64,000 bases of DNA from Thermococcus sibiricus MM 739 (GTDB lineage Archaea; Methanobacteriota_B; Thermococci; Thermococcales; Thermococcaceae). The notes under the pieces are model-generated. The model had not been told where the DNA came from. It was given only the letters and a program-made list of their open reading frames with translations, and made no database searches. The position numbers and the translations under genes are program-made. Positions 1,958 through 17,190 of this stretch are shown here, piece by piece (within the stretch, counting starts at the first letter, position 1; every line of letters starts with the position of its first letter). The DNA is taken from assembly GCF_000022545.1 (NCBI RefSeq), contig NC_012883.1:310001-374000 (forward strand), in the 5' to 3' direction.

Positions 1958-2917
1958 TTAGTTCTCAACAAGCCGGTAAACCCTCACGTAATCCACATAC
2001 ATCCTTGCGGGGAACTTAGTTCTTGCATTTGGTACTCCAGGCCAATTGCCCCCTACGGCCAGGTTGATGATTATATAGAAAGGCTTGTCGAAGACCCATT
2101 CATTATCCATAGTCTCCACTTGCTCCTTTGTGACCACATGGTAGAGTTTACCATCGACGTACCACTCTATCCTGTCGGGGAACCACTCTATGGTAAAGAC
2201 ATGGAAGTCTTCTGTAAAGTCGGGAACACCTTCAGGAAGCGTGTAGCTGTTTGTTATTGATCTGCCTCCAGAATAACCCGGCCCATGGACGGTACCGTGC
2301 ACAGTTCTAGGTTCATGACCGACGAACTCCATTATATCTATCTCCCCACACTGAGGCCAGCCTACTTCACCAATGTTTGTTCCAAGCATCCAGAATGCCG
2401 GCCAGAGTCCTTTTCCATTTGGGAGTTTCATTTTTGCTTCAATCCTTGCGGGGGGCTCAACTTCAACTTTACCCTGGGTTTTGAGTCTTGAGGAGGTGTA
2501 CATGTAAGTTCCGTATTCATCTGTAACCCACTCCTTTCTGGCCTCTATCACGAGGGTTCCGTTCTCGATTCTCGTGTTGTTGGGGGAGTAGTATTCAAGC
2601 TCGTAATTTCCCCATCCGGGAATTCCGTATGCGTGGCCGTTCCCTATCTCAAATGTCCAATAATTTTCATTCACTTTTTCCCCTTCGAAGTCATCGTACC
2701 ATATGAGTTCCCATGTTCTACCGTTTTCCTCTATTGTTTTGGTGATATATGTGGTTTCCGTTGTTGAATTTGTCTGAGTTGATGGGCTTTTTGTGACCGA
2801 CTCCGCCGGAGATGTTGAGAAAGTCTTTGTTGGGGTATTCCCTCCCTCTATGCACCCACCAATAAAGCCTACGAACACAACCACGAGCACTAAAAGTCCA
2901 AAGCTTCTTTTATCCAT
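1958..2917 (-). CDS. lamA: Laminarinase, endo-beta-1,3-glucanase (GH16), lipoprotein
   Basis: A 319-residue GH16 beta-jelly-roll enzyme that hydrolyses beta-1,3-glucan (laminarin) outside the cell. The N-terminus has a hydrophobic signal ending in a lipobox-like GFIGGC (Cys22), then a Ser/Thr/Pro-rich spacer (about 25-60) typical of archaeal surface lipoproteins. The catalytic block GEIDIMEF puts the nucleophile at Glu192, the helper at Asp194 and the acid/base at Glu197; GGYSG-type and IEWYVDGKLYH blocks follow. The catalytic part resembles Pyrococcus furiosus LamA, which from memory is shorter and lacks this long spacer. The start follows the PIN gene stop by 5 nt, so it is translated from the same transcript as the upstream glycosidase and toxin-antitoxin genes. 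Confidence 0.93.
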   Translation of the reverse strand: MDKRSFGLLVLVVVFVGFIGGCIEGGNTPTKTFSTSPAESVTKSPSTQTNSTTETTYITKTIEENGRTWELIWYDDFEGEKVNENYWTFEIGNGHAYGIPGWGNYELEYYSPNNTRIENGTLVIEARKEWVTDEYGTYMYTSSRLKTQGKVEVEPPARIEAKMKLPNGKGLWPAFWMLGTNIGEVGWPQCGEIDIMEFVGHEPRTVHGTVHGPGYSGGRSITNSYTLPEGVPDFTEDFHVFTIEWFPDRIEWYVDGKLYHVVTKEQVETMDNEWVFDKPFYIIINLAVGGNWPGVPNARTKFPARMYVDYVRVYRLVEN

Positions 2918-3415: not shown

Positions 3416-3631
3416 TTATTCCTCCCACTCTTTCAATTTTTTAAGTATGTCGAGGGCTTTCTCACTTTCTTCATCATCAAGACTTATTTTTTCGATTTTT
3501 TTGCCCAGATTGGCAGTGTGCCATGTCTCCAAAAGTATTCTGAGCACCTGGTCATAGGACTTTGCGTCGAGCTTTGCTTTGAGCTTCTTTATTGTGTTCC
3601 AGGTTTCTTCATCAACTGCTATGGTCTTCAT
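3416..3631 (-). CDS. VapB-like antitoxin
   Basis: A 71-residue protein beginning MKTIAVDEETWNTIKKLKAK, the beta-strand plus helix start of the archaeal VapB-type (DUF217-like) antitoxins, followed by SYDQVLRILLETW and a charged C-terminal tail that would wrap the toxin. Its ATG overlaps the stop of the upstream GH1 gene (ATGA), and the PIN gene starts 4 nt after its stop, so the pair is translationally coupled to a sugar gene. I recognise it by sequence style and by its neighbour, not by any search. Confidence 0.75.
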   Translation of the reverse strand: MKTIAVDEETWNTIKKLKAKLDAKSYDQVLRILLETWHTANLGKKIEKISLDDEESEKALDILKKLKEWEE

Positions 3632-5133
3632 ATCATATCACCCCTGAGGTATTCTTTTCTAATCCTATCTGTTATGCCATCATTCTCTATGATCTCTCTG
3701 TACACACCAACACTTTCTTTCCGAGGAATTCTCTCTTTTGTTATCATATCGACTACATAAAGACCAAATCTCATCCTGAAGCCCATGGCCCACTCGTAAT
3801 TGTCCGTCAGAGCCCAGTGGAAGTAGCCCCGGACATCAAAGCCCTCTTCGATGGCCTTTTCTATGTAATCTATATGCGATGCTATGAAGTAGGGTCTCAA
3901 AAGATCTTTGGAATCGGCGATCCCGTTTTCCATTATATATATGGGCTTTCCATAGGACGATGCAGCCTTTATGCTGTTGTATATTCCTTCTGGATAAACC
4001 TCCCATCCAATGTCGCTTACGGGGTGTCCATCTAAGGATGATTCATTTGGTGGGCAAGAGTAACCATAGCCAGGTACTCCCTTGAAAGCCGTGATTGGGA
4101 TTTCCTTGAACTTAGGTTCTGAATGGGTAATAACCTCCCTCGAATAGTATGTCATGCCTATCCAGTCGAGCCGCTTTAAATGGGGTACCTTCAACATTGT
4201 TTCCATATCAAATTCAGCATTTAGCTCTCCCTCGGTCAGTGCTTTAAGCAGAAGTCCACTGTGGAAGAAGTCGACCATTTCAGCTGCTTTAACGTCCTTG
4301 GGGTTGTTAGGGTCTTTGGGGTAAGATGTTCCCACGTTGTTCGCGATTATTCCAACAGGCGCTTTTGAGAAATTCTTTATTGCTTCATAGGCCCTTGCGT
4401 GAGCGTTTATTATGTTAATAATTGCCTTCTTTGCGTTTTCTGGACTTATGACTCCCGGGGGAAATCCCGAATACGGAGCTAGGTAACCAAGCTCAACCAT
4501 TACCATAGGCTCGTTGAATGTTGTCCACATGTCCACAAGATGCCCAAACTTGTAGGCAAGGTAAGCTGCAAACTTTGTGAACTCTATTATGGAGCGTTGG
4601 TTTACCCATCCGTTTCTTTCGTTTTTTAGGTTGGTTTCCCTAGATTCTATTGGATCATGTAGCCATAGAGGATGTGTATAATGGACAATGGTTATAAACA
4701 CTTTGAATCCCATCTTCTTCAGGTTTGAGAGAACACTCATGTAGTGCTCAACTTCCTCAATGTTTGCAATATTGTTAAGTTCTTCAAGGACTTCTTTGGT
4801 GATTTTAACCTCTTTAATCAGCCCGTTACTATCAAGCTCGTAGTCGACGTCAATTCCATAGGTTGCACATGGGAATATTCTGCTCCATTCTAGGTTGAGG
4901 GAGTAGGCATTAGCCCCAAGCTTCTTTGCAAGGAGATGATCGATAGGATAAAGTTCGTAGTTATTTATACCTTCTTCGGGCAAATCTCCACTTACAAGTC
5001 CTTTTTTTAGATTGGTGGGATCCCTAACCCATTTCCACCAATCACTTCTTATGTCTAGGTGTCTATTGAATCTATCCCCCATTTCGAACTGGAAACCGGA
5101 CTGAGCAACTCCCCAAAGAAACTCTTTTTCCAT
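3628..5133 (-). CDS. GH1 beta-glycosidase (CelB/LacS-like)
   Basis: A GH1 TIM-barrel beta-glycosidase that releases glucose or galactose from beta-linked oligosaccharides in the cytoplasm (no signal peptide). From the ATG at 5133 the acid/base is Glu208 in TTFNEPMV and the nucleophile Glu402 in IMENGIADS; WFHWALTDNYEW-type aglycone/glycone residues are present as YFHWALTDNYEWAMGF. I prefer this ATG, with GGGGGA 6 nt upstream, over an in-frame TTG at 5139 that would overlap the upstream gene by 4 nt. It is one of two GH1 genes in the island; the other is at 17194-18657. Substrate (cellobiose, laminaribiose or agaro-oligomers) cannot be told from sequence. Confidence 0.93.
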   Translation of the reverse strand: MEKEFLWGVAQSGFQFEMGDRFNRHLDIRSDWWKWVRDPTNLKKGLVSGDLPEEGINNYELYPIDHLLAKKLGANAYSLNLEWSRIFPCATYGIDVDYELDSNGLIKEVKITKEVLEELNNIANIEEVEHYMSVLSNLKKMGFKVFITIVHYTHPLWLHDPIESRETNLKNERNGWVNQRSIIEFTKFAAYLAYKFGHLVDMWTTFNEPMVMVELGYLAPYSGFPPGVISPENAKKAIINIINAHARAYEAIKNFSKAPVGIIANNVGTSYPKDPNNPKDVKAAEMVDFFHSGLLLKALTEGELNAEFDMETMLKVPHLKRLDWIGMTYYSREVITHSEPKFKEIPITAFKGVPGYGYSCPPNESSLDGHPVSDIGWEVYPEGIYNSIKAASSYGKPIYIMENGIADSKDLLRPYFIASHIDYIEKAIEEGFDVRGYFHWALTDNYEWAMGFRMRFGLYVVDMITKERIPRKESVGVYREIIENDGITDRIRKEYLRGDMI

Positions 5134-5135
5134 CT

Positions 5136-6611
5136 TCAATCCCCCTCATAACCAGTGAGATGTATCTCCTCAAGTTTCCTATTTAACTCTTCGAACATGA
5201 TTACCATCTCCTCGTAAGGCTCATCTTTAATGTTTACAAGTCCATAGTTGCTGTTCTCTCCATCAAAGCGGCCTTCCTTGGGCTGGTCTGACCACTTGAA
5301 CCAGTGATAGCCGACTGCGTATGGGAGCTTCATGAAGCTCTCTATGAATTTTCTCGTATATTCAGCCCTCTCTTTTTGAGTTTGAACTGTTATTCCTGCT
5401 CCTCTTGTGTTTGGAAGACCAGAATCCATAGCCCTAAAAGAGAATTCCGTTATCATTATAGGTCTTCCCGTGATGTTATGAATGTGGTCAAGGTACTCTT
5501 TTGGAGCCACCTCAAAGTTATAGAGGTTGAGGGATATTACATCAACATATTTCCCTGCAACTTCAAAAACGACATCTGGTGGCCTGATGAATGGAGCTAC
5601 TGCGAATCTTACTCCCAATATGAGATGGTTTGGATCAACTTCCCGTATAGCTTTTGTAACTACACTAAAGTACCTTTCCGCATACCGTCTTGCAAACTCC
5701 CGTCTAGCCTCATTAAATGGAGCACTCGATGGGAGCTTCCCAGTGTAGTTAAGCAAATCATCAAAAGATGTATAACTTGTTTTAAGCTCTTCGTTTAGCT
5801 TGGAGATATCCCCATTGAAAATATCTTTTATGACATCCACTGCTACTCGTTTTCCGGGAGCGTCTGGGGGAAGTTTTATGAAATCGTCCAAAAGATGATT
5901 GCCGGATCTCCAGTCCGGACCCCAACGCAGTTCATTATCTGTAAAATATCCTATTATCAAAGGATCATCCTTGAGGGGAGCGACTTTAAAGGAGACTGCC
6001 TTTTTTACGTACTCTTCAAAATCTTTCTCGAATATATCTGGCATGGCTCCACTTTCCCAGTTAAAACCGTAACTTGCTCCTATATCAAGAAGGAGAGTGT
6101 AAGGAAGCATTACATAAAGTTCAGGAGAAGACCAAGCGCCAACAGTATTGAAACCCCACTCAACGAACCTTCTGGTTGTGGTGTTAATCCACCCTTCTAT
6201 ACTCCCGTATTTTCTAAGGACATTAAGATAGTAAGGAGAGTAACCAAGTGCGGGTGAATGATCTCCGAGGTAATTTATTGCGTTTACACCTTTAGATACA
6301 AAAACATAACCTTCAGGATCAACAAGCCAGTATTTTCCGTTTATAACTTCTACTCTAAAGTAACCTGAGCTTTCAACCCTCAATTCCTTCCATCCTCCAA
6401 ACTTGGAATATCCTTCCGGAAACTCCACTTGGGGTTTTATTCTCTCTTCGCTTTGAGTTGTCGTGGTTGAAGTTTCTATATAAGTAGTAGTGGTTTTTTC
6501 AGTAGTTTTAGAGGTGGAAGTAGTTTGGTTTCCTCCAAGACATCCTAGGAATAATGTGGAAATCAGGATTACTCCGAGGATCATGCCATAAACTGCTTTT
6601 CTCAAATTCAC
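5136..6611 (-). CDS. Agarase-like glycoside hydrolase lipoprotein (GH50/GH86-like)
   Basis: A 491-residue secreted (alpha/beta)8 hydrolase. The N-terminus has a hydrophobic signal with LFLGCLGG lipobox and a Thr/Ser-rich spacer. Likely catalytic acids are Glu in GYFTDNELRWGPDW (acid/base) and Glu in RPIMITEFSFRAMDSG (nucleophile), the arrangement of clan GH-A. The phrases FVSKGVNAINYLGD and GYHWFKWSDQP recall GH50/GH86 agarases; I also recall a beta-agarase in the Thermococcus sibiricus island. True substrate (agarose versus another galactan or glucan) is an inference. The start is uncertain: GTG at 6611 is very close to GGGGGT, while TTG at 6605 has better spacing. The next gene begins 2 nt after its stop. 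Confidence 0.75.
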   Translation of the reverse strand: MNLRKAVYGMILGVILISTLFLGCLGGNQTTSTSKTTEKTTTTYIETSTTTTQSEERIKPQVEFPEGYSKFGGWKELRVESSGYFRVEVINGKYWLVDPEGYVFVSKGVNAINYLGDHSPALGYSPYYLNVLRKYGSIEGWINTTTRRFVEWGFNTVGAWSSPELYVMLPYTLLLDIGASYGFNWESGAMPDIFEKDFEEYVKKAVSFKVAPLKDDPLIIGYFTDNELRWGPDWRSGNHLLDDFIKLPPDAPGKRVAVDVIKDIFNGDISKLNEELKTSYTSFDDLLNYTGKLPSSAPFNEARREFARRYAERYFSVVTKAIREVDPNHLILGVRFAVAPFIRPPDVVFEVAGKYVDVISLNLYNFEVAPKEYLDHIHNITGRPIMITEFSFRAMDSGLPNTRGAGITVQTQKERAEYTRKFIESFMKLPYAVGYHWFKWSDQPKEGRFDGENSNYGLVNIKDEPYEEMVIMFEELNRKLEEIHLTGYEGD

Positions 6612-6652: not shown

Positions 6653-7789
6653 CTAAAGTTTCCTCCTTAGTACCAGCGGAATCATTACTAGTCCCAAAAG
6701 AGCTGCTGGACCACAAATTCCTCCAGCGCTTTCGGTGACTGTCTCGGTCTCAGTGAGTGTCTCTGTGACTTTTTCGGTCTTGGTAGTCGTTTTGGTTTCG
6801 GTTATGGTCTTTGTTTCAGTAACGGTCTGGGTTGTCTTGATGATCTTTGGTGCTTCGCTTGGGGAAAGCACAGTTGCGTCGTAAATTATCCATCCGTATT
6901 CGAAGCTTGTCCCCTCGCTTCCGCTGTAGGAGCCTATTGAAATTGACGTCCATTGCTGGTTCTCCACCGGCATACCGAAGAAGTCGAAAAGCTGTTCAAC
7001 GACCTTGTCTATCATGGGTTTGATATCAATAACCACCTCTCCAGAAGTTGGAAGTGGCTCCTGTGGCATGAAGAGTAGTACACCCCATCCGCCTCCGGAA
7101 AGAGCCCTTTGAACAGTAAACTTTGCATTAGTATTAAGTTCTCCGTTTATGATTACTGTTGAGGTTACCTCACCAATTTCCGTTACATCACCAACAATTC
7201 CTCCGAAGTCGTCAAAGAATGGCACATATATTTCTCCGATTGGAGCTCCAGTGGCTGGGTCTTCGAACCATATGTTTATCCCGAACCTTACCAAGGTGTC
7301 ATCTCTCTTGGACACGTCATACTTAACCTTCACCCACATGCTATCATAGCTGGAGAGCTCTGAGGCTGGAAGCGGAAGCTGAAGGTAATCATAGCCCCCG
7401 ACAGGTGCTTTATCCCCCCACCACTGGGCAGGTGCTCTTCCGTCTATTATAACCTCTGGAGTTGCCCAAGCTATCCCGCCCCACTGTGTCTCAACGTTCT
7501 CGAGGTTAACGTAGAAGGCGAAATCTTCGGTTGCTTTGACAAACCTCATAAAGACTTCTCCTTGGCCACCAATGATGTTCCAGAAGTTGGTTTGCATCCA
7601 GACGGTTCTACCATCACTTAACTGGATTGGTTCCTCAAGCCACTGATCCCACCAAGTGAATTGGATCTCTCCTTCCTCTGCAGTTGAAGCCACAGCCTTT
7701 ATATCCTCAAGGCTGGCGGCTGTTGCCATCCCGGCGAAAACCGCCAATACCATAAATACTCCCAGTAGCTTTTTGAGAGTTTCACTCAT
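6653..7789 (-). CDS. Secreted GH12-like beta-glucanase-fold protein with CGP-CTERM anchor
   Basis: A 378-residue exported protein: signal peptide (about 1-24), one GH12-like beta-jelly-roll (about 35-310), a long Thr/Glu/Lys/Val repeat linker (TETKT, TKTEKV, TETVTES) and a C-terminal GGICGPAALLGL-hydrophobic-RRKL segment, the CGP-CTERM sorting signal known from Thermococcales surface proteins. Blocks match P. furiosus EglA by eye: FWNI, GGIAWATPEV, WVKVKYDV, then GEIYVPFFDDFGG, whose Glu fits the GH12 nucleophile. The usual acid/base position (IGTE) reads IGSY here. It has its own TATA-like element (GTTTATATG) and GGTGATT upstream of the ATG. Cellulase activity is therefore unproven; a carbohydrate-binding role is possible. 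Confidence 0.7.
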   Translation of the reverse strand: MSETLKKLLGVFMVLAVFAGMATAASLEDIKAVASTAEEGEIQFTWWDQWLEEPIQLSDGRTVWMQTNFWNIIGGQGEVFMRFVKATEDFAFYVNLENVETQWGGIAWATPEVIIDGRAPAQWWGDKAPVGGYDYLQLPLPASELSSYDSMWVKVKYDVSKRDDTLVRFGINIWFEDPATGAPIGEIYVPFFDDFGGIVGDVTEIGEVTSTVIINGELNTNAKFTVQRALSGGGWGVLLFMPQEPLPTSGEVVIDIKPMIDKVVEQLFDFFGMPVENQQWTSISIGSYSGSEGTSFEYGWIIYDATVLSPSEAPKIIKTTQTVTETKTITETKTTTKTEKVTETLTETETVTESAGGICGPAALLGLVMIPLVLRRKL

Positions 7790-7907
7790 GGGGAATCACC
7801 ACTTATAAATTGCACCCATTACATATAAACTTTTTCAAAATTATAGAATACTACATAAATTATAATAACTCAATGGTAAAATGATAGAAATTAAAGAAAA
7901 AATGGAG

Positions 7908-9749
7908 TCAGCCAATTGACGGAACATCCTCGGGCTTAACTACCCTGACGTCATGGATTATCCATCCGTACTGGAAGCCTGTGCCTTTACTGCCGCTGTA
8001 AGAGCCAACTGCCATTGACACCCAAGTGTTTTCTTTCCCGATGATTTTGGCGATCTCAGCCACTAGTGGCTTTACGTCTATGTAGACCTCTCCTGAAGGT
8101 ACTGGGTCTTCAGGTATGAACTCAAAGCTCCACCAGTTGCCCGGATTCCAGCCTCTCTGGAGTGTAAAGCTGGCTTGGGTAGCTCTTCCATTGATTACCA
8201 TGGTGGTCGTGACCTCCCCGAGGTTCTCTTTGTCACTGAGAACTAGTCCTCCAAAGTCATCGAAGAAGGGGATGTAAACCTCTGCCGCGGGCCATCCTTC
8301 GATGTTCTCGAACCATATGCCAATGCCAAACCTCACCAGTGTATCGCTCCTCTTTGTCACGTTGTAATCCACCTTGACCCATATACTATCGTAGTTGTTG
8401 ATTTCACTGGCCTTGAGCGGAAGGTCGAAGAATCCGTAGCCTCCCACCTTAGGCTTGCCTCCCCACCATACTGCAGGTGATCTTCCAGCGAAGATGACTT
8501 CTGGAGTTGCCCAGGCTATTCCGCCCCACTGTGTCTCAACCTTCTCTAGGTTAACGTAGAAGGCGAACTCGTCTGTTCTGTGGATATAACGCATGAAGAC
8601 TTCTCCTTGGCCACCAATGATGTTCCAGAAGTTGGTTTGCATCCAGACGGTTCTACCATCACTTAACTGGATTGGTTCCTCAAGCCACTGATCCCACCAA
8701 GTGAACTGAATGTCACCCGGCCCCTTGGTGGAAGCTATGCTCCAAAATTCCTTGAACTTTGTTGAGAAGATCACATTCTCTTCTAACTCTTCGGTGGCCT
8801 CTTTGATCAACCAATAGGCGTTTTTAATGTATTTTACCACTTTTAAATCGCCTTTTGGATATGAGATGGCGTTCATATATTCATTCTCAGCCTGAGTTTT
8901 GAGTTCCTCAGCTTTTTCAATGAGTTCAGGTTCAATGTTCAAATATTGTGCCTCTAAAAGAAGTGACTCGTATTCTTTCAAGAGGGAATGGTATTTCAGG
9001 GAATACTCACTGACCTCCTTGGCTGCTCTCATGAACAGGAAGGCCTTTCTTAAGTGGACAAACACTCTAAGATTGCCTGCTTGGGTGTAGACCGCCCCTC
9101 CGGATATTCTAGAGGCCTCGGAGTATTCTTTCTCTCCGAGCTCCTTTAGGGTCTGGGCAATTGCAGTTAAGTTGTCATTAAGAGACGAGAGATTTTCTTT
9201 AAGGATCATGTATTTGTTCAAGTCCCTTTGGTAGTTGAAATAGTAATAGAAACCAAGCACTGTGAAAATATTGGAAGCTTCGGTTGGCTTCTCTTCAAGT
9301 TTCTTTTCAGGTGTTGGGGGAGCGGTGAGCTGGATGACTCTGGCATCATACAGTATCCATCCGAGCTCGAAGTTGTTCCCGTTGCTTCCGGTGTAGGTTC
9401 CAAATGCTAAGGAGCTCCATATTATGTCCCCCTCAGTGTAGTCCGAGTACTCGTCAGCGATTATCTCTTTAACCACCTTATCAACGACAGGCCTTAGGTC
9501 AACAATGACCTCGCCTGAAGTCGCGAGTGGCTTCTCGGGTATGAAGTCAAAGGCAAAGTTGTTCCAGTTCCAAGCCTTCTGCACTCTGAAAGTAACGTTT
9601 TTGGCTTCTCCATTGATGCGCACGGTGAGCGTTACGCTCCCGACATCGGCAGGAGGGAACTGGGCACCCACGATTCCACCGTAGTCGTCAAAGAATGAGA
9701 TGTAGACCTCTGCGAGCTGGTAACCATCTTGCTTCTCAAACCACATCAT
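7908..9749 (-). CDS. GH12-like multidomain protein, C-terminal part (after in-frame stop)
   Basis: 613 codons in the same frame as the ORF that ends at 9753; only a TGA and one TTC codon separate them. The N-terminal 150 residues are the second half of the GH12-like domain begun upstream (AEVYISFFDDYGG, FGTYTGSNGNNFELGWILYD). Residues about 160-340 form a helical, charged segment unlike the other domains. Residues about 345-613 are a third GH12-like domain (QTNFWNIIGGQGEVFM, AEVYIPFFDDFGG, VGSYSGSKG). No ribosome-binding site lies before the ATG at 9749, so this half is probably not made unless the TGA is read through or is a sequence error. No C-terminal anchor is present. Confidence 0.7.
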   Translation of the reverse strand: MMWFEKQDGYQLAEVYISFFDDYGGIVGAQFPPADVGSVTLTVRINGEAKNVTFRVQKAWNWNNFAFDFIPEKPLATSGEVIVDLRPVVDKVVKEIIADEYSDYTEGDIIWSSLAFGTYTGSNGNNFELGWILYDARVIQLTAPPTPEKKLEEKPTEASNIFTVLGFYYYFNYQRDLNKYMILKENLSSLNDNLTAIAQTLKELGEKEYSEASRISGGAVYTQAGNLRVFVHLRKAFLFMRAAKEVSEYSLKYHSLLKEYESLLLEAQYLNIEPELIEKAEELKTQAENEYMNAISYPKGDLKVVKYIKNAYWLIKEATEELEENVIFSTKFKEFWSIASTKGPGDIQFTWWDQWLEEPIQLSDGRTVWMQTNFWNIIGGQGEVFMRYIHRTDEFAFYVNLEKVETQWGGIAWATPEVIFAGRSPAVWWGGKPKVGGYGFFDLPLKASEINNYDSIWVKVDYNVTKRSDTLVRFGIGIWFENIEGWPAAEVYIPFFDDFGGLVLSDKENLGEVTTTMVINGRATQASFTLQRGWNPGNWWSFEFIPEDPVPSGEVYIDVKPLVAEIAKIIGKENTWVSMAVGSYSGSKGTGFQYGWIIHDVRVVKPEDVPSIG

Positions 9750-9752
9750 GAA

Positions 9753-11276
9753 TCATGGCCTTACGAGGGTGTTCTCACTCTTAACGAGCTCAAAGTCAAC
9801 CTTGGCCAGTATGCTGGCATAGTTCGTTCTATCCTTGGCGGGCATTGGGAGGTCAAACCACCCATAGCCTCCTGCTCTTGGAAGCGGAGTCCCGCCGCTG
9901 AGGCTTGGAGGAACCCTACCGGCCAGGACAACGTTTGGGGTTGCCCAAGCTATCCCACCGTACCGTGTTTGGATATTGGTCATGTTGACATAGAATACTA
10001 CTGTATCCTCAGAACTTATGAACCTCATGTAGTTCTCGCCATCCCCACCGGCTATGTTCCAGAAGTTAGGCTCAACCCAGAGGGTGGTGTTATCGCTTCT
10101 CGTGACCAGTTGACCTGGCCATGTGCATACCTGCCTTGTTACCCCATTGTCGTCGTAGGGGGGAGCCCAGTAGTCACCAGATGTCCACTGGAGGACAACA
10201 TCTCCCGGTTCTGCCTCGGTCGAGAGGTTTTTGACCTTGTAGAAGAGGGCCTCCTTTAGGGATTCAAATACTCCAGCTTCTTTCAGGATCCATCCGAGCT
10301 CGAAGCTGTTCCCGTTGCTTCCGGTGTAGGTTCCAAAACCTATGGAAGTCCAGGTTATCTGGTCTGCTGTCCAGTCGGAGTACGGGTCATCCACGATGGC
10401 TTGTATTGATCTCTCAGCGAATGGTGTGACGTTCAGGGTGACTGAGCCTCCCGTTGTTATGGGTTCTGTTGGAACGAACTTAATGACGAAGTGGTCTGCA
10501 TTCCATGCTCTTTGGACTTTAAACTCCACTTCTTTGGGGGCCCCGTTTACGTAAACCGTAGCTGTAAGTGTTCCTATGTCTGCGGGTGGGTACTGGAGGT
10601 TCTTTTCATGATCATCGTAGAAGAAATCATCTTGGAATGCTATGTAGACTTCTGCAAGGGGCCAGGCTTTGCCAGTCCCGTATGGATCCCAGTCTGGGCT
10701 TTCAAACCACATTATTAAGCCGGTTCTTGCAAGGGTTTCTTCGCTTTTGGCCATTTCGAAGTCAACGCGGGCCCATACTTCTCCGAGGGTTGACACATCG
10801 GCCCCATTTACAGGAAGGCTGAAGAAGTCGTAACCTCCAACGAGTGGCTTGTCACCCCACCATGCTGCTGGTGCTCTTCCTACGAAGATGACGTTTGGAG
10901 TGGCCAGGGCGTCTATGGGGGAAGTGCTGCCGTCCCACCTTGGGGCAGTTTCAGTGTACGTTCTTTCAATGTTGCTCATGTTTGCGTAGAATGCTATTGT
11001 ATCTTCTGAGCTTATGAACCTCATGTAGTTCTCGCCGTCACCGCTGGCTATGTTCCAGAAGTTAGGTTCCATGTAAATTGTTGTCCCATCACTCCTCTGA
11101 ACAATCTGCCCCGGCCAAGGATTGCTTGGGGACCACTGAAGGGTTATGTCTCCCTGCTCTGACGACTTTGCTACTTCCTTAATCTCGGAAAGAGTAGTTG
11201 CTGCAACATATCCTCCAAGTAGAACCAATATCAAAAAGACCCCAGTTAAGTGCTTCAGTTTCCCTCTTAATGCCAT
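9753..11276 (-). CDS. GH12-like multidomain protein, N-terminal part (ends at in-frame TGA)
   Basis: 507 residues: signal peptide (about 1-27, ending YVAATT), one complete GH12-like domain (about 40-335; EPNFWNI, GRAPAAWWGDK, AEVYIAFQDDFF, FGTYTGSNGNSFELGWI) and the first half of a second one (from about 355), cut at LVRP by TGA 9753-9755. The other copies have Gly at that point (LVRFG, LARTG), so a GGA-to-TGA change is the simplest reading; the joined gene 7908-11276 would encode about 1122 residues. The ATG has GGTGATC 4 nt upstream and a TATA box near 11306-11317. It heads the minus-strand half of the island, divergent from the oligosaccharide transporter. A secreted two-thirds product truncated in domain 2 is what would be made as written. 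Confidence 0.72.
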   Translation of the reverse strand: MALRGKLKHLTGVFLILVLLGGYVAATTLSEIKEVAKSSEQGDITLQWSPSNPWPGQIVQRSDGTTIYMEPNFWNIASGDGENYMRFISSEDTIAFYANMSNIERTYTETAPRWDGSTSPIDALATPNVIFVGRAPAAWWGDKPLVGGYDFFSLPVNGADVSTLGEVWARVDFEMAKSEETLARTGLIMWFESPDWDPYGTGKAWPLAEVYIAFQDDFFYDDHEKNLQYPPADIGTLTATVYVNGAPKEVEFKVQRAWNADHFVIKFVPTEPITTGGSVTLNVTPFAERSIQAIVDDPYSDWTADQITWTSIGFGTYTGSNGNSFELGWILKEAGVFESLKEALFYKVKNLSTEAEPGDVVLQWTSGDYWAPPYDDNGVTRQVCTWPGQLVTRSDNTTLWVEPNFWNIAGGDGENYMRFISSEDTVVFYVNMTNIQTRYGGIAWATPNVVLAGRVPPSLSGGTPLPRAGGYGWFDLPMPAKDRTNYASILAKVDFELVKSENTLVRP

Positions 11277-11317: not shown

Positions 11318-11366
11318 ATTTACCTAAAGCTATAACTAAGGAACCAGAATTATAATTTTGAAAAAA

Positions 11367-11374
11367 TTTATAAG
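11367..11374 (+). promoter_or_regulatory. TATA box for the cbt transporter operon
   Basis: TTTATAAG preceded by a purine/A-rich stretch; a start about 25 nt on leaves a leader of roughly 35 nt holding a small CCCTA/TAGGG hairpin before the GGGGG ribosome-binding site of the binding-protein gene. Confidence 0.55.
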
Positions 11375-11429
11375 TTATGAGCCCTATAGTCCCGTAGGGA
11401 ATATTAAAAATTTACTCGGGGGTATGGGA

Positions 11430-13472
11430 ATGAACGACTCAAAAAGAAAGTTGATAACTAGTTTCGGAATTTTTTTGATTTTTATGGCAATGTTACCGTC
11501 TGCAAGCGCGCAAGTCTCTCTTCCAAGGGAAGACACGGTTTTCGTGACCGGTGCGCAATGGAGCCCTGCATCAACGTGGAACCTGTTCTCGCCATCCCAG
11601 ACGTGGGGAACATACACATCGGGCGGATTCATGTATCTACCGCTCTTTCAGTACATAGCAGGTCTCAACATGTGGGTCCCCATAATAGGTGAGAGCTTTG
11701 AGCTCGTAAACGAGACAACTCTCCTCGTTTACCTCAGACCTGAAGCAAAATGGAGTGATGGAAAGCCCATTACTGCGGAGGACGTTGAATATACTTACAA
11801 ACTCTCCAGAGAAGTTGGTTCTGGGCCTGCTGCAGGTTCAGAGCCCTACATCAGCGATGTTAAGGTAATTGATACACACACAGTTCAGTTCACAATTGGA
11901 GAGGAAAAGAACCTTCCTATGTTCTTGCTTTATGCTCTCCAGTTTGCCCCTGCACCGAAGCATATCATTGAGCAAGTATATGAAAAAGTTGGAGCAGATA
12001 TCATAAACTGGAGAAACTGTGGTGGAACATGTGATGACATAGTCTCCACAGAGAGTGGAGATGTAAGGATAGATCTCCCCCAAGTAGTCTCGGGTCCCTA
12101 CAAGCTGTACTACTTTGATGAACTCAGAATTGTCTATGAGAGAATAGACGATTGGTGGGGGAAAGACATCTTTGGACTACCGGGTCCAAAGTACCTAGTT
12201 CACAGAATCTACCTAAGTAATGAGCAGGCACTTCTGGACCTTAGACAGGGAAATGTTGACTGGTCGGGCATATTTATTCCAAATGTCGGTAACTTCAAGG
12301 AAATAGGCACGTTCTATAAGAGTAAACCTTACTTTAGGCCAGGAGCTTTTGTTATGCTCTACTTAAATCACAGGGATCCGATTTTCCAGGACACCAACTT
12401 AAGAAAAGCTATTGCCTATGCAATAGACTATCAAGAGGTCCTAACCAAAGCATTCTACGGTTATTCAGAGCAACCTTCAATGTCTTTGGTGTTTACGGTA
12501 TTTCCCCACTATAGGATGTGGCTCAACACTACCCTTGCTCAAGAGTATTTCAGCAATCCCGAGGGCAGGATACAGACCAACAAGGAGTTCGCAAAGCAGA
12601 TTCTTGCTCAGGCGGGATATAAGGATGTGGATGGTGATGATTATCTTGAAACTCCCACTGGTGAAAAGATCGAGCTTAACATAATAATACCAACCGGATG
12701 GACAGACTGGATGATTGCAGCCGATTTGATTGCAAGTGACCTCCAGGACATTGGACTTAACGTCGTGGCAAACCCAGTGGATTACGGTGCCTACTGGGGT
12801 ATGGTAAACTCTGCTGGATACACCCTGGCCCTTGGATGGACAAGCTCCCCGTCCTTCTATCATCCATGGGACACCTACCGGTATGTTCTTGATCCAAGAC
12901 TCACTCCCCCAACCGGGAACTGGGGCTTCTATAACAACTCCAAGGCTTTGGAGTTCCTCGTTCAGGCAGCAAAGGCTGAGACCTCGGAAGAGCTCATGAA
13001 ATACTACACTGAAGTTCAAAGACTCATATATGAGGAAGTCCCTGCTATCCCAATTGCCTATTCGGTTCAGTGGTACGCTTACAGTGAAAAGTACTGGAAG
13101 GGATGGCCAAATGAAGACAACCCGTGGTGGACCGAAGTCGCTCCATACAGAGAGTACTCCCTACCACTCTGGCTCACTTTTGGTTTATCAAAAAGTGGAG
13201 AAGAGATTAAACCGCCACAGTGGGCCAAGCCCAAAGATGAAGGAGGAATTTTAATACCGAACAAAGAACTCCTCAGTCAGCTTACAGAAGTTTTTGTTCC
13301 CGAGATTACGCCAACCGAGACGTTTTCGACTTCATCCGCTTCGGAAACTGAGCCTCAATCACCCAGTGAACCACAAGAGCCGAGTAGAAGTTCAGGATTC
13401 ATTATAGGGCTTGTAGGAATTATCATAGTAGTCATTATAATTGTGATAGGTGCCAGAAAACTTCTCAAATGA
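11430..13472 (+). CDS. cbtA: Oligosaccharide/oligopeptide ABC transporter binding protein (CbtA-like, SBP family 5)
   Basis: The extracellular solute-binding protein of a Dpp/Opp-type transporter. Signal peptide (LITSFGIFLIFMAML to SASA), SBP_bac_5 body with WSDGKPITAEDVEYT near residue 95 and RKAIAYAIDY near 330, then an acidic Ser/Pro/Glu linker and a C-terminal membrane anchor (GFIIGLVGIIIVVIIIVIGA) followed by KLLK. I chose ATG 11430, 7 nt after GGGGG; ATG 11424 and an upstream ATG at 11358 lack proper spacing. The family also carries peptides, but position beside glycanases and a GH1 gene, and similarity in layout to P. furiosus CbtABCDF, argue for beta-gluco-oligosaccharides. Confidence 0.85.
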   Translation: MNDSKRKLITSFGIFLIFMAMLPSASAQVSLPREDTVFVTGAQWSPASTWNLFSPSQTWGTYTSGGFMYLPLFQYIAGLNMWVPIIGESFELVNETTLLVYLRPEAKWSDGKPITAEDVEYTYKLSREVGSGPAAGSEPYISDVKVIDTHTVQFTIGEEKNLPMFLLYALQFAPAPKHIIEQVYEKVGADIINWRNCGGTCDDIVSTESGDVRIDLPQVVSGPYKLYYFDELRIVYERIDDWWGKDIFGLPGPKYLVHRIYLSNEQALLDLRQGNVDWSGIFIPNVGNFKEIGTFYKSKPYFRPGAFVMLYLNHRDPIFQDTNLRKAIAYAIDYQEVLTKAFYGYSEQPSMSLVFTVFPHYRMWLNTTLAQEYFSNPEGRIQTNKEFAKQILAQAGYKDVDGDDYLETPTGEKIELNIIIPTGWTDWMIAADLIASDLQDIGLNVVANPVDYGAYWGMVNSAGYTLALGWTSSPSFYHPWDTYRYVLDPRLTPPTGNWGFYNNSKALEFLVQAAKAETSEELMKYYTEVQRLIYEEVPAIPIAYSVQWYAYSEKYWKGWPNEDNPWWTEVAPYREYSLPLWLTFGLSKSGEEIKPPQWAKPKDEGGILIPNKELLSQLTEVFVPEITPTETFSTSSASETEPQSPSEPQEPSRSSGFIIGLVGIIIVVIIIVIGARKLLK

Positions 13473-13484
13473 TAGGTGGTAGTG

Positions 13485-14492
13485 ATGAGACCATTATACA
13501 GGTATTTCCTCATTAAACTTTCTTTTTTACTCGCTACGTACTTTGTTGCCGTTAGTATCGCATTCTTTCTGCCCAGAATAGCTCCGGGCAATCCAGTGCA
13601 GCAGATTATAGCAGGACTATCCCAGGGTTCGCTCTCACCTGAGCTGCTCGATCAATATCAAAGGAGGCTTATAGAGGAGTTTGGGTTAAACAAGCCCCTC
13701 CATGTTCAGTATTTAGAATTCCTTAAAAACGCATTTTCAGGGAATCTGGGGACTTCGATATCTTCATTCAGACAGCCCGTGACGAAGTTAATAGCTTGGC
13801 ATCTACCTTGGACGCTACTCCTGCTCATACCGGCTACCTTGGTTTCATGGGCCGTTGGAAACTATCTCGGTGCAAGGGCGGCTTACAGAAGAGGCACATT
13901 GTTCGAAAAGATCACTGTCTCAACGGGCATAATAACCTCCCAAATTCCATATTACTGGATGGCCATGGTTCTCATATTCGCCTTCGCAATTAAGCTTGGA
14001 TGGGTGCCCTCGGGTTCAGCCTATGACCCAACTTTAGCTCCCTCCTTCAGCTGGGAGTTCATAAAAAGCTACCTCCGTCATTACATACTTCCATTCTTAT
14101 CCATAGCCCTTGTGAGTACTGGAGGATGGATAATAGGCATGAGAGTCTTAGCAACAATGGAACTTGGGTCAACGTACGTCAATTTTTCCGAGAGGCTCAA
14201 CGTTAGCAACGAGATTATATTTAGATATGTCCTCAGGAATTCCCTGCTCCCACAAGTGACAGGAATAGCAATCCAGTTGGGAACGGTTATGGCCGGACAG
14301 ATTATCACGGAGCAAATTTTCAACTACCAGGGTATGGGTATCCTTCTTGCTAGGGCACTTGGAACGAGGGATTATCCATTGATACAAGGGATCTTTCTCA
14401 TTCTGATAGGAACACTCCTGCTTGCGAACTTCATAGTGGAGTTCATCTACGTGCTAATAGATCCAAGAATAAGGCTTGGAGCAAGGGAGTGA
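13485..14492 (+). CDS. cbtB: ABC transporter permease (CbtB/DppB-like)
   Basis: A 335-residue inner-membrane permease of the DppB family: an N-terminal membrane helix, a conserved ARIAPGNPVQQ-like segment (PRIAPGNPVQQIIAG), five further helices and the C-terminal coupling region GTRDYPLIQGIFLI. The ATG at 13485 follows GGTGGTAGTG; the in-frame GTG at 13476 lies inside that ribosome-binding site and is rejected. It starts 12 nt after the binding-protein stop and pairs with the next gene to form the translocation pore. Confidence 0.88.
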   Translation: MRPLYRYFLIKLSFLLATYFVAVSIAFFLPRIAPGNPVQQIIAGLSQGSLSPELLDQYQRRLIEEFGLNKPLHVQYLEFLKNAFSGNLGTSISSFRQPVTKLIAWHLPWTLLLLIPATLVSWAVGNYLGARAAYRRGTLFEKITVSTGIITSQIPYYWMAMVLIFAFAIKLGWVPSGSAYDPTLAPSFSWEFIKSYLRHYILPFLSIALVSTGGWIIGMRVLATMELGSTYVNFSERLNVSNEIIFRYVLRNSLLPQVTGIAIQLGTVMAGQIITEQIFNYQGMGILLARALGTRDYPLIQGIFLILIGTLLLANFIVEFIYVLIDPRIRLGARE

Positions 14493-14503
14493 GGTGATTA
14501 ATT

Positions 14504-15352
14504 ATGAACAAGGAAATACTTTATGTACTCTTCAGAAATAATAGGTTCTCCATAGGGTTCGCCATATTGATGTTTGAAATCCTTTTAGCTTTATTTGGTG
14601 CCTATCTCTACCCCGTGGATCCTTTTAAGCCTGCTGGGCCTCCGGCAGTTCCACCAAGTAGTGAGTATCTTCTCGGAACAGATCAGTTTGGAAGGGATAT
14701 CCTTGCACAGGTGGTAATAGGTATAAGGAACTCTCTCTATGTAGGAGCCCTTACGGGATTATTCTCGATTCTCATAGGACTCATAATCGGAATTGTGGCT
14801 GGAATAAAAGGTGGGCTCATAGATGAAACGTTAATGGCCTTTACTAACGTTGTCATTACAATACCCAACGTCCTTCTAGCCATTATCATAGCGACCTACC
14901 TCGGCCTTGAGCATTCAGGACTCACATTGGTGGCTGCGATAATATCGCTGACTGCTTGGCCGTGGTTTGCGAGAGCAATAAGGGCACAGTTAATCAGTCT
15001 AAGGGAAAGGGACTTCGTTAACTTTTCCAAGATGACAGGTTACAGTGATCTTAAGATAGCAGTTTTTGACCTATTCCCCTACGTGACTACCTACACCATA
15101 GTTTCCTTTGTCACTTTCATGAACATAGGGATAAACGCAGAGGTTGGGCTCAGCATACTAGGATTAACACCAATTCAAATAATGACCCTCGGAAAGATGC
15201 TCTACTTCGCAGCAGTTACTCAGTCGTACTTCCTCGGTCACTGGTGGGTCTTCATACCTCCGGGAATACTTCTAGTGGCTCTTTCGACTTCACTGCTCTT
15301 GATAGCTACGGGAATAGAACAGGTATTTAACCCAAGACTGAGGGAGATGTGA
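14504..15352 (+). CDS. cbtC: ABC transporter permease (CbtC/DppC-like)
   Basis: A 282-residue DppC-family permease. It has the family start (one helix, then a loop with LGTDQFGRDILAQVVIGIR), the pore helices, and a cytoplasmic coupling loop REDFVNF-like (LRERDFVNFSKMTGYSD). GAGGTGAT lies 5 nt before the ATG. Second pore subunit of the oligosaccharide importer. Confidence 0.88.
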   Translation: MNKEILYVLFRNNRFSIGFAILMFEILLALFGAYLYPVDPFKPAGPPAVPPSSEYLLGTDQFGRDILAQVVIGIRNSLYVGALTGLFSILIGLIIGIVAGIKGGLIDETLMAFTNVVITIPNVLLAIIIATYLGLEHSGLTLVAAIISLTAWPWFARAIRAQLISLRERDFVNFSKMTGYSDLKIAVFDLFPYVTTYTIVSFVTFMNIGINAEVGLSILGLTPIQIMTLGKMLYFAAVTQSYFLGHWWVFIPPGILLVALSTSLLLIATGIEQVFNPRLREM

Positions 15353-15362
15353 GGTGTGAACG

Positions 15363-16379
15363 ATGGACAAAAGAATGGTTCTTGAGGAGTTAAGGGCATA
15401 CTATCGTCAACTCAAGGGAACGACCGAGTATCTCGTGAAGGCAGTGGATGGCGTTAATTTAGAAGTGTACAAGAAAGACATCCTTGGTCTTGTTGGTGAG
15501 AGCGGGTGTGGTAAGTCTACCCTCGCCAAAACCATGATGATAGATTTGACCCCCCCGTTGCAATATATGGGAGGTAGACTTGAGATTATAAGCAGAGATG
15601 GGGAAAGGTTTGAGATAGGTCAATTCAAAAGCAGAGATGAAGTTAAAAGACGTCTTTGGGGTAAACATATAACTTATGTCCCGCAAGACGCCCTGAACGC
15701 TCTCATGCCCACAATAAGGATTAAAAAAATTGCCTATGATGTTCTTCGCTCGCATAACAATGACATTAACTTCCAAGAAGCAGTGAAAACCACAAAAGAG
15801 CGGCTTGCTGAGCTTGACCTCCCTGACTATGTGGTTGAACTCTACCCCTTCCAGCTGAGCGGAGGGATGAGACAGCGAGTAGTGTTGGCCATGGCAACGC
15901 TTCTGAACCCGGAAATCCTTATAGTAGACGAGCCGACATCAGCACTCGATGTAACTACTCAGAAAATAGTCTTAAAGTCTCTCCTCAAGCTCAGGAAGTT
16001 AAATCTCGTGGACAGCATCATATTTATAACACATGATATAGCCACGGTGAGACAGATAGCAAACCGCATAGTGGTTATGTACGCCGGAAAGATAGTTGAA
16101 GTGGGTCCAGTAGATTCCGTAATTAGGGATCCTCTCCATCCCTACACGAAAGGTCTCATCGATTCTGTTACATCCATAGAGCCGGAGAAGAGGGAGAAGG
16201 GTATCTCCTACATCCCGGGACAGCCACCCAATCTTATAGATCCTCCAAAAGGATGTCGTTTCCATCCAAGATGTCCATATGCTATGGATGTTTGCAAGAA
16301 AGAGGAGCCAGGGGTTGTTGAAGTTGGAAAAACTCAAGTAGCGTGCTGGCTTTACGAAGGAGGTAGGAAAAATGACTAG
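15363..16379 (+). CDS. cbtD: ABC transporter ATP-binding protein (CbtD/DppD-like)
   Basis: A 338-residue ATPase of the DppD/OppD group. Walker A GESGCGKST near residue 45, signature LSGGMRQR near 165, Walker B ILIVDEPTSALDV near 190, and the C-terminal oligopeptide/dipeptide extension with PGQPPNLIDPPKGCRFHPRCPYAMDVC, whose cysteines often bind an iron-sulfur cluster in this family. GAGGTGTGAACG precedes the ATG; the 3' end overlaps the next gene by 8 nt, so the two ATPases are co-translated. Confidence 0.88.
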   Translation: MDKRMVLEELRAYYRQLKGTTEYLVKAVDGVNLEVYKKDILGLVGESGCGKSTLAKTMMIDLTPPLQYMGGRLEIISRDGERFEIGQFKSRDEVKRRLWGKHITYVPQDALNALMPTIRIKKIAYDVLRSHNNDINFQEAVKTTKERLAELDLPDYVVELYPFQLSGGMRQRVVLAMATLLNPEILIVDEPTSALDVTTQKIVLKSLLKLRKLNLVDSIIFITHDIATVRQIANRIVVMYAGKIVEVGPVDSVIRDPLHPYTKGLIDSVTSIEPEKREKGISYIPGQPPNLIDPPKGCRFHPRCPYAMDVCKKEEPGVVEVGKTQVACWLYEGGRKND

Positions 16380-17190
16380 AGAGATGCTCATCTGTGATAA
16401 CGTCACGAAAGTATTCACATCAGGCTTCATCAAAAAAATAGTGGTCAAAGCGGTTGACAACGTGTCCTTTACGGTTAAAGAGGGCGAGATAATATCCCTG
16501 ATAGGACAGAGCGGTTCTGGAAAAACCACTCTTGGAAAGATAATACTCCGGCTTATCCCTCCTACTTCTGGAAGGGTGCTTTTTTACGGGAGGGATATTT
16601 GGAAGGAGATAAAAACCAAAGAGGAGCGCAAAGAGTACTGGAGACAGGTGCACGCGGTCTTCCAGAACCCTATGGGGAGCTTTAACACTTTCTACAAGGT
16701 AGATAGAGTCCTAAACCAAGCTCTTGAGCTCATAGGTGTTGAACCCAATTCAGAGGAGGGCATACGCCTAAAAGAAGAGTCTCTTAAGGCAGTGGGCCTA
16801 AATCCAGGGGAGATCCTTGGAAAATATCCTCACCAGCTCTCTGGGGGTCAGGTTCAGAGGGTCATGATATCAAGAAGCTGGATTCTAAAGCCAAAGCTGT
16901 TAATCGCTGACGAAGCAGTTTCAATGCTGGACGTGTCAACGAGGGGTAGGATAGTAGAGATTTTCAAGGATCTCCGCAACAAGCTTGGAAGTTCTATAAT
17001 ATTCATATCCCATGACATAGGCTTATCCTACTTCATCTCTGACAGGGTCTTCATAATGTACAAGGGAAAGATCGTGGAGGCGGGGACACCTCAAGAAGTT
17101 ATTGATAACCCGCAGCATGAATACACTAAGACGCTCGTAGAAAGTGTTCCAACCGTTTACAGGAAATGGGAGGACTTTATGGAGGTGTGA
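16372..17190 (+). CDS. cbtF: ABC transporter ATP-binding protein (CbtF/DppF-like)
   Basis: A 272-residue ATPase that partners CbtD. Walker A GQSGSGKTT near residue 44, Q-loop VFQNPMGSFN, signature LSGGQVQR, and Walker B LLIADEAVSMLDV. It lacks the full cysteine-bearing C-terminal extension of its partner. ATG has GGAGGTAGG upstream, inside the end of the previous gene. Confidence 0.87.
   Translation: MTREMLICDNVTKVFTSGFIKKIVVKAVDNVSFTVKEGEIISLIGQSGSGKTTLGKIILRLIPPTSGRVLFYGRDIWKEIKTKEERKEYWRQVHAVFQNPMGSFNTFYKVDRVLNQALELIGVEPNSEEGIRLKEESLKAVGLNPGEILGKYPHQLSGGQVQRVMISRSWILKPKLLIADEAVSMLDVSTRGRIVEIFKDLRNKLGSSIIFISHDIGLSYFISDRVFIMYKGKIVEAGTPQEVIDNPQHEYTKTLVESVPTVYRKWEDFMEV

What the first reader, a model, noticed from the sequence alone, without database searches (positions are those of the whole stretch)
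6653..11276. Four GH12-like domains keep the nucleophile region but have Tyr at the acid/base position
Each domain has an (A/G)E(V/I)YIxFxDDF block fitting the GH12 nucleophile, yet where EglA and fungal Cel12A read GTE the four domains read GSY or GTY, followed by (S/T)GSxGxxF. The change is consistent in all four, so it is not decay. They may be lectin-like binding domains, or enzymes with a different mechanism or acid.
Basis: partly seen in the sequence, partly recalled or inferred. Interest (0 to 1): 0.6.

Follow-up and report, generated by a model that had tools for sequence, protein, structure and literature searches.

The report
Archaeal cellulase-like domains lacking catalytic acid
A heat-loving archaeon carries cell-surface proteins built from cellulase-shaped domains that have lost the acid needed to cut sugars, so they more likely hold a seaweed-type glucan for neighbouring enzymes than cut it themselves.

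Summary
The finding holds in outline. The minus strand encodes four domains of GH12 (cellulase) fold: D1-D3 in one secreted protein, D4 in a second with a CGP-CTERM anchor. D2 is interrupted by an in-frame TGA (9753-9755); relatives have it intact. Tyr stands in the GH12 acid/base column in 12 of 12 domains from five genomes. The strand carrying it has no Asp/Glu in 12 of 12, against 2-4 in 8 of 8 thermococcal GH12s; another active-site Glu is also lost. D4's AlphaFold model (pLDDT 90) superposes on P. furiosus EglA (Z 29.9).

That the nucleophile is kept is only about 65% likely: alignment methods split between Glu161 and Tyr163, one structural clue favours Glu161, a weak fragment model opposes it.

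The domains occur in exactly the five of 94 family genomes that carry the neighbouring GH16 and GH50-like genes. The T. pacificus cluster that I take to be this locus reportedly improved growth on laminarin.

Best reading: GH12-derived, non-hydrolytic beta-glucan-binding modules (0.57). An enzyme with a rebuilt centre is not excluded. In the papers I saw, the family appears only as an 'Unknown GH domain' orthogroup (matched here by gene counts).

The parts
6653..7789 (-). 378-aa protein: signal peptide, one GH12-like domain (D4), Thr/Glu-rich stalk, CGP-CTERM anchor
   Evidence: ORF; CGP-CTERM TIGR04288 E 5.5e-6, 26.5 bits over cut-off 21; signal peptide and stalk by inspection
6860..7714 (-). 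Domain D4 (285 aa), the domain modelled; Glu161 codon 7232-7234, Tyr163 7226-7228, Tyr263 (acid/base column) 6926-6928
6659..6718 (-). CGP-CTERM sorting/anchor segment (residues 358-377)
7908..9749 (-). ORF downstream of the in-frame TGA: C-terminal part of D2, helical-looking spacer, D3
7932..8759 (-). Domain D3 (276 aa)
8760..9326 (-). spacer of 189 codons between D2 and D3, helical-looking by inspection; a counterpart is present in L066
   Evidence: not modelled
9327..10259 (-). Domain D2 (311 codons), interrupted by the TGA
9753..9755 (-). In-frame TGA inside D2; the other 11 domains have a Gly codon at this column
10260..11198 (-). Domain D1 (313 aa)
9753..11276 (-). ORF with signal peptide (by inspection), D1 and the N-terminal part of D2
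5136..6611 (-). lipoprotein-like GH50 homologue, next gene downstream
   Evidence: five agarase-type PDB chains at E 3.6e-53 to 2.7e-33 (their GH50 label is recalled); same five genomes
3628..5139 (-). GH1 glycosidase (BgaS-type)
1958..2917 (-). GH16 beta-glucanase/laminarinase-like lipoprotein
   Evidence: PF00722 E 1.4e-29; same five genomes
1..1918 (-). part of a 1058-aa GH149-like (beta-1,3-glucan phosphorylase related) gene that runs off the window
11358..17190 (+). divergent SBP_bac_5 binding protein and Opp-type ABC transporter genes
17194..18657 (+). second GH1 glycosidase (BgaS) after the transporter

Best explanation
These are GH12-derived domains that no longer hydrolyse and now bind beta-glucan. 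Shown by computation: they have the GH12 jelly-roll fold; the acid/base Glu column is Tyr in every copy; the strand bearing it has no carboxylate; another conserved active-site Glu is gone and the Asn that touches the acid/base has become Arg; two groove residues of the minus subsites (Asn43 and Trp45 of D4) and Trp149 are invariant; the proteins are repeated (3+1, 3+1, 2, 1 and 1 domains per genome), carry signal sequences by inspection and in part an anchor; and in all five genomes they sit with GH16, GH50-like and GH149-like genes. Inferred: the array holds beta-1,3-glucan (laminarin-like) at the cell surface through the old substrate groove, raising the local concentration for the GH16 and GH50-like enzymes, whose products are taken up by the divergent ABC transporter and split inside by the GH1 and GH149-like enzymes. 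Tyr263 and Tyr163 would serve as sugar contacts; Glu161, if it does sit where the nucleophile was, would bind hydroxyls.
For: Fold: D4 model pLDDT 90.3, pTM 0.89; EglA 3vgi Z 29.9, Thermotoga Cel12A about 28, other bacterial and fungal GH12 18.7-22.3. Acid/base: Tyr in 12 of 12 SY domains, Glu in 8 of 8 thermococcal GH12; acid/base strand 0 acidic in 12 of 12, against 2-4 in 8 of 8. E128 column I/M/G/N/L in 12 of 12, N124 column Arg in 12 of 12; N32 column Asn, W34 and W130 columns Trp in 12 of 12 (site residues as listed in PMC12265866, section 17 read). Constraint: dN/dS 0.17 at dS 0.37; one side of a 100/100 branch. Locus: SY family in 5 of 94 family genomes; GH50-like in the same 5 of 94; GH16 in the same 5 of 94; GH149-like in those 5 plus 2; order read in four other genomes. 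Function of the locus: a ~20 kb T. pacificus cluster put into T. onnurineus raised growth on laminarin (PMC11989552, sections 5, 6, 8 read). The characterised GH50 most closely related to the Thermococcus GH50s is a beta-1,3-endoglucanase (PMC11079163, passages). CBMs are said to be 'not common for archaeal glycosidases' (PMC4853606 section 26).
Against: No binding data exist. Several groove residues of real GH12s are not kept: the W71, E77 and W85 columns differ in 12 of 12, K83 in 2 of 12, E30 is Gln in 8 of 12, although the alignment around W71-W85 is uncertain. Glu161 is invariant, which a dead site does not require. PMC11989552 counts the orthogroup among glycoside hydrolases, and one sentence of its section 5 can be read as placing a characterised enzyme in the 'unknown GH domain' group; its reference 34 is by title a beta-glucosidase. 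Linkage inside one locus cannot separate binding from catalysis.
Confidence: 0.57

Rival explanations
1. They are working enzymes: Glu161 is the nucleophile and Tyr263, or an acid from a loop, or the substrate itself, replaces the acid/base, giving a hydrolase or transglycosylase for beta-1,3-glucans.
For: Glu161 and Tyr163 are invariant. The identity count against EglA wild type, E290A and E197A (21, 21 and 20% of 253 pairs) fits Glu161 sitting on E197, and hhalign puts Glu on the nucleophile in 7 of 10 settings. Invariant acids D34, E53, E151, D168 and D169 exist. None of the four carriers tested has a GH12 found by PF01670 (G103 was not in that call), so an enzyme could be wanted.
Against: No acid on the acid/base strand; E128 is lost and N124 is Arg. 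MAFFT, phmmer, hmmsearch and the fragment model put Tyr163 on the nucleophile, which would leave no catalytic Glu at all.
Confidence: 0.22
2. They loosen or disperse glucan without hydrolysis, in the manner of expansins, which kept one of two catalytic acids of a glycosidase fold (recalled).
For: At most one of the two catalytic acids is kept, the groove Asn and Trp are kept, and the proteins are tandem and secreted by inspection.
Against: Laminarin, the substrate the T. pacificus cluster supports, is soluble and needs no loosening. No direct evidence.
Confidence: 0.08
3. They bind something other than an external glucan, for example S-layer glycans or partner proteins, and only hitch-hike in the locus.
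For: An inactive GH12 that acts by protein binding is known: PsXLP1 of Phytophthora sojae (PMC8960721 passage).
Against: Same five of 94 genomes as the GH16 and GH50-like genes, and retained groove residues.
Confidence: 0.08
4. The genes are decaying remnants of cellulases.
For: The in-frame TGA at 9753-9755 and a cut copy in G043.
Against: Tyr in 12 of 12, dN/dS 0.17, intact 1077- and 414-aa copies in G103, D2 and D3 as close to their G103 counterparts as D1 (64, 64 and 62%).
Confidence: 0.05

Closest known systems
Pyrococcus furiosus EglA (PF0854, PDB 3vgi), GH12
   Same: Fold over 253 of 285 residues, Z 29.9, 21% identity; Asn/Trp of the minus subsites
   Different: E290 (proton donor) is Tyr, E178 (the E128 equivalent, by counting) is lost, N174 is Arg; no DxDxDG calcium motif by inspection; tandem repeats and CGP-CTERM anchor
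Thermotoga maritima Cel12A (PDB 3amh and others) and TMDG GH12-2 (7s8k)
   Same: Among the best sequence hits in PDB; same fold
   Different: Both catalytic glutamates present there
OG0002308 'Unknown GH domain' of PMC11989552 (T. sibiricus 3, T. pacificus 2, four species 1 each)
   Same: Gene counts match this family (3 ORFs here; 2 genes in G103; 1 each in G043, G045 and G047), so probably the same genes (inference from Table 1)
   Different: No domain assignment, active-site analysis or single-gene function in the sections I read; they list six species, I found five of 94 genomes
Phytophthora sojae PsXLP1, inactive GH12 decoy
   Same: A GH12 relative without the acid/base Glu that acts by binding (passage)
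   Different: Lost by C-terminal deletion, not by a conserved Tyr; binds a plant protein
GH11 xylanases (clan GH-C)
   Same: Same jelly roll, Z about 18-19; P-[LI]-x-E-x-Y-[IV] resembles the GH11 nucleophile pattern (recalled)
   Different: GH11 has the acid/base Glu (recalled); the model is nearer to GH12
Surface glycan-binding proteins (SusE/F-like) and expansins (recalled)
   Same: Proposed way of working: secreted, non-hydrolytic binding next to endo-acting enzymes
   Different: No shared ancestry tested; fold here is GH12

Membership tests
GH12 glycoside hydrolase | Clan GH-C beta jelly roll, closest to GH12 structures | tested here: met
   Z 29.9 to 3vgi, rmsd 2.3, 253 aligned
GH12 glycoside hydrolase | Recognised by the curated GH12 model PF01670 | tested here: not met
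   No PF01670 match at E <= 1 in the three window ORFs nor in the two G103 proteins; none at E <= 0.001 in G000
GH12 glycoside hydrolase | Acid/base Glu (E290 in EglA) | tested here: not met
   Tyr in 12 of 12 domains, Glu in 8 of 8 GH12; no acid on that strand
GH12 glycoside hydrolase | Nucleophile Glu (E197 in EglA) | tested here: inconclusive
   For: VIA identities 21/21/20% against wild type/E290A/E197A; hhalign, Glu in 7 of 10 settings, a gap in 2, none in 1. Against: MAFFT, phmmer and hmmsearch, the fragment model, constrained alignment score 73 to 63. Split: per-sequence hmmsearch 4 Glu, 5 Tyr, 1 mixed, 2 unaligned of 12; pairwise posteriors favour Tyr in 53 of 96
GH12 glycoside hydrolase | Assisting Glu on the neighbouring strand (E128 in TMDG GH12-2) | tested here: not met
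   I, M, G, N or L in 12 of 12
GH12 glycoside hydrolase | Hydrolysis of beta-1,4- or mixed-linkage glucan | not testable with these tools
   needs protein
Surface glycan-binding module | Secreted and, in part, surface anchored | tested here: met
   CGP-CTERM over cut-off in the window D4 protein and in the G103 414-aa and G047 722-aa proteins; signal peptides by inspection only
Surface glycan-binding module | Encoded with polysaccharide-degrading and uptake genes | tested here: met
   G045 lacks the transporter side next to the gene
Surface glycan-binding module | Measured affinity for a glycan | not testable with these tools
   needs protein
GH11 xylanase | Acid/base Glu on the equivalent strand | tested here: not met
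   No Asp/Glu on that strand in 12 of 12
Expansin | GH45-like fold plus CBM63-type partner (recalled) | not tested
   No GH45 comparison was run; the model's best matches are GH12

The most novel reading that the evidence does not exclude
A GH12-fold enzyme whose retaining Glu pair has been rebuilt into a Tyr/Arg/Glu centre (Tyr263, Arg143, Glu161, perhaps Tyr163): for example a Tyr nucleophile assisted by Glu, as in sialidases, or a Tyr-acid elimination, as in polysaccharide lyases (both recalled), acting on beta-1,3-glucan or a charged polysaccharide.
Probability: 0.1. Interest if true: 0.85.

Novelty: new variant of a known kind. Interest (0 to 1): 0.5.

Why it matters
If they bind, archaea made a carbohydrate-binding module by disarming a cellulase, which would explain how glycosidases that rarely carry CBMs hold their substrate in hot water, and would put a role on a gene group that a 2025 paper lists only as 'Unknown GH domain'. 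If they cut, GH12 chemistry is possible without its acid/base Glu, a mechanistic surprise that can be tested directly on a stable protein.

Tried and rejected
Catalogue searches: Pfam and NCBIfam gave no GH12 for the window ORFs or the two G103 proteins, and NCBIfam none for the G047 protein. Two scans of genome contigs and one of plasmids found no relative; genomes near the window's own may be left out of these collections, so this is not proof of absence elsewhere. Beyond these, only the window's own phylum was searched (115 genomes).

Many of the hits are shared Thr-rich CGP-CTERM tails (query from about residue 280-350 to 378), not domains; I did not count them.

Register of the nucleophile: I first took as supporting Glu161; recounting showed it supports Tyr163. 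I then took the two Viterbi rows as Tyr163, which reads the columns by script, shows Glu. In one search the upstream anchor of one GH12 (G008_2) was wrong; one search repeats it with the right anchor (53 instead of 51 of 96 for Tyr163). The fragment model was meant to settle the question; its ends have pLDDT below 50 and its acid/base register disagrees with MAFFT and hhalign, so I give it little weight; it is against my preferred register. In one search my acid/base pattern hit a wrong place in three GH12 rows and the script stopped with a parse error; one search repeated the hhalign part. These corrections leave the 0.65 for Glu161 as it was.

Alternative acids: none on the acid/base strand. 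The invariant acids D168 and D169 are seven and eight residues from Glu161 along or just past the same strand, too far by strand geometry to be the missing acid; the places of D34, E53 and E151 were not inspected in three dimensions.

dN/dS is of little use for most pairs because dS is saturated or nearly so; G045-G103d is the usable one. The GH12/SY tree puts each on one side of a branch, but it carries a long-branch warning and has no outgroup.

Paper searches with no result: GH12 + catalytically inactive + glycan binding + glycoside hydrolase, pseudoenzyme + archaea + two more terms, TSIB_0324-0329 tags, guessed, GH12 + tyrosine + catalytic acid + Thermococcus. The 2009 T. sibiricus genome paper is not held.
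Full report
What is there. On the minus strand between 6653 and 11276 lie three ORFs. The first, 9753-11276, starts with what looks like a signal peptide and holds domain D1 and the front of D2. It ends at an in-frame TGA (9753-9755), and the next ORF, 7908-9749, continues in the same frame with the rest of D2, a spacer of 189 codons and D3. The third, 6653-7789, has a signal peptide by inspection, D4, a Thr/Glu-rich stalk and a CGP-CTERM anchor (E 5.5e-6). The genome is a single 1,845,800-base contig; its size equals what I recall for Thermococcus sibiricus MM739.

The TGA. In the alignment of 12 domains the other 11 have a Gly codon at that column. Genome G103 has one intact 1077-residue three-domain protein, and G047 an intact two-domain protein. 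D2 and D3 are as close to their G103 counterparts (64 and 64%) as D1 is to its own (62%), so there is no sign of decay behind the stop. Whether it is real or an old sequencing error I cannot tell.

Relationship. Pfam and NCBIfam do not recognise the domains as GH12. The relationship is nevertheless clear: the D4 protein against the PDB gives T. maritima Cel12A at 2.9e-7; the seven-row profile gives nine GH12 chain sequences, variants of three enzymes, at 1.9e-9 to 1.5e-7; hhalign of 12 SY domains against 8 thermococcal GH12s gives 99%. The D4 model (pLDDT 90.3, pTM 0.89) matches P. furiosus EglA with Z 29.9, Thermotoga Cel12A with about 28, other GH12 with 18.7-22.3 and GH11 with 18.2-19.2 among the 50 rows shown.

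The acid/base. The Tyr of GSY/GTY stands where GH12 has its acid/base Glu in 12 of 12 domains; the 8 thermococcal GH12s all have Glu. The 12 are 11 full-length domains (one, D2, holding the TGA) and one from G043 that is cut just after the motif. hhalign agrees in 8 of 10 settings; the other two give no alignment there. Profile alignments of single domains are less tidy: 7 of 12 agree, 2 are one column off, 3 are not aligned there. Over the 11 residues from nine before to one after this Tyr, no domain has any Asp or Glu (0 of 12), while the GH12s have two to four (8 of 8). So no carboxylate on this strand can stand in. Two further active-site residues named for the Thermococcus 2319x1 enzyme (PMC12265866, section 17 read) have also changed: E128 to I/M/G/N/L and N124, which touches the acid/base, to Arg, each in 12 of 12. 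N32, W34 and W130 are kept in 12 of 12; W71, E77 and W85 are not kept in any, in an uncertain part of the alignment.

The nucleophile. Two registers compete: Glu161 of D4 on the nucleophile, or Tyr163, with Glu161 on the acidic residue two before it. MAFFT, phmmer and hmmsearch choose Tyr163. hhalign chooses Glu in 7 of 10 settings, leaves a gap in 2 and does not reach the place in 1. Domain-by-domain profile alignments are divided: 4 Glu, 5 Tyr, 1 mixed, 2 unaligned. Pairwise posteriors favour Tyr163 in 53 of 96 pairs. A constrained global alignment of D4 with EglA scores Tyr163 better, 73 to 63. Structure gives one clue each way. VIA aligned the confident model to three EglA entries over 253 residues with the same ranges: wild type 21%, 3wr0 21%, 3wy6 20% identity. 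One search shows that 3wr0 is E290A and 3wy6 is E197A. A drop with E197A alone is what Glu161 on E197 predicts, and Tyr163 would not cause it; but the step is one residue at a rounding edge. The Thermotoga pairs (wild type and E134C, all 24%) do not decide, and Foldseek's percentages for the EglA entries, 21, 20 and 20, do not show the pattern. A fragment model of residues 158-266 (pLDDT 71.6, ends below 50) starts, in its trimmed rows, at residue 162 on the residue just before the nucleophile of 3vgi and 3amq, and so puts Tyr163 on it; the nucleophile numbers of 7drb, 1h0b and 4hk8 are recalled and agree. Its untrimmed rows to 3wr0 and 3wy6 start at a pair that fits neither register. It also puts Gly265, not Tyr263, on the acid/base, against MAFFT and hhalign, so I trust it little. 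I put Glu161 at about 0.65, partly because P-[LI]-x-E-x-Y-[IV] also resembles the GH11 nucleophile pattern (recalled). Under either reading the classical two-glutamate mechanism is absent.

Distribution and constraint. In 94 genomes of the family the Tyr-type domain occurs in five (G000 4, G103 4, G047 2, G045 1, G043 1 cut copy), and in no further genome of the phylum sample of 115. The other eight genomes matched there hold GH12s or multidomain glycosidases with both glutamates, by inspection of the sequences printed. The GH50-like neighbour is in the same five of 94, the GH16 in the same five, the GH149-like gene in those five plus two. Four loci of other genomes keep the order GH12-like, GH50-like, GH1, GH16, GH149-like, three of them with the divergent transporter; G045 lacks the transporter and the tandem gene at that place. 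G045 against G103d gives dN/dS 0.17 at dS 0.37; the other nine pairs have dS above 1. The SY domains form one side of a 100/100 branch. The in-genome copies are old: D1 and D2 group with their G103 counterparts (100/100 and 92/90), and D3 is most like G103c (64%).

The locus. The next gene down matches agarases at 3.6e-53 (GH50 by recall). PMC11079163 (passages) reports a beta-1,3-endoglucanase as founder of GH50_3 and most closely related, outside its own class, to six archaeal GH50s, among them several of Thermococcus. The 1058-residue protein at the window edge matches a beta-1,3-glucan phosphorylase model weakly (93.7 bits, cut-off 1150). PMC11989552 (sections 5, 6 and 8 read) moved a ~20 kb T. 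pacificus cluster into T. onnurineus and obtained better growth on laminarin. Its Table 1 lists an 'Unknown GH domain' orthogroup with 3 genes in T. sibiricus, 2 in T. pacificus and 1 in four others. These counts match this family; that it is the same family, that the cluster is this locus and that G103 is T. pacificus are my inferences. One sentence of its section 5 can be read as putting a characterised enzyme into that group; the reference given is by title a beta-glucosidase.

How it most likely works. A repeated domain with a signal sequence, an old glucan groove, no acid/base and in part a stalk and an anchor, in all five genomes beside secreted-looking glucanases, is best read as a capture device: it holds beta-1,3-glucan at the surface while the GH16 and GH50-like enzymes cut it. 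PMC4853606 (section 26 read) notes that binding modules are not common on archaeal glycosidases, which fits a home-made substitute. Shown: fold, loss of the acid, constraint, linkage. Inferred: that it binds, what it binds, and the benefit.

Standing. GH12 members are defined here by two glutamates; one is tested and absent, so I do not file these as GH12 enzymes but as a GH12-fold lineage that lost its acid/base. An inactive GH12 acting by binding is known in Phytophthora (PsXLP1; PMC8960721 passage), so the kind is known and this variant is new to me. My searches for a published account of the Tyr substitution found none, within the open-access library only.

Noticed in passing
9753-9755, minus strand: In-frame TGA in a gene that is intact in G103, with no sign of decay downstream; a real nonsense change or an old sequencing error.
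   Followed up: partly
L011 2330-2470 (G043): The single GH12-like domain is cut right after GSYSGG; a CGP-CTERM-coding stretch seems to follow in another frame (by inspection).
   Followed up: partly
5136-6611: Archaeal GH50 homologue next to the GH12-like genes, likely of the beta-1,3-glucanase branch GH50_3.
   Followed up: partly
-1258 to 1918 (L070 4743-7919): 1058-residue protein with a weak GH149 beta-1,3-glucan phosphorylase match, in seven of 94 genomes; G002 has only residues 399-1057 and G006, at a contig edge, only 776-1057.
   Followed up: partly
2923-3411: Small protein (162 aa), looks PIN-like by inspection, between GH1 and GH16 genes here and in L066, L067 and L069.
   Followed up: no
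32027-44582: Further sugar-uptake region: SBP_bac_1 binding protein, L-fucose isomerase C-terminal domain match, permease gene.
   Followed up: no
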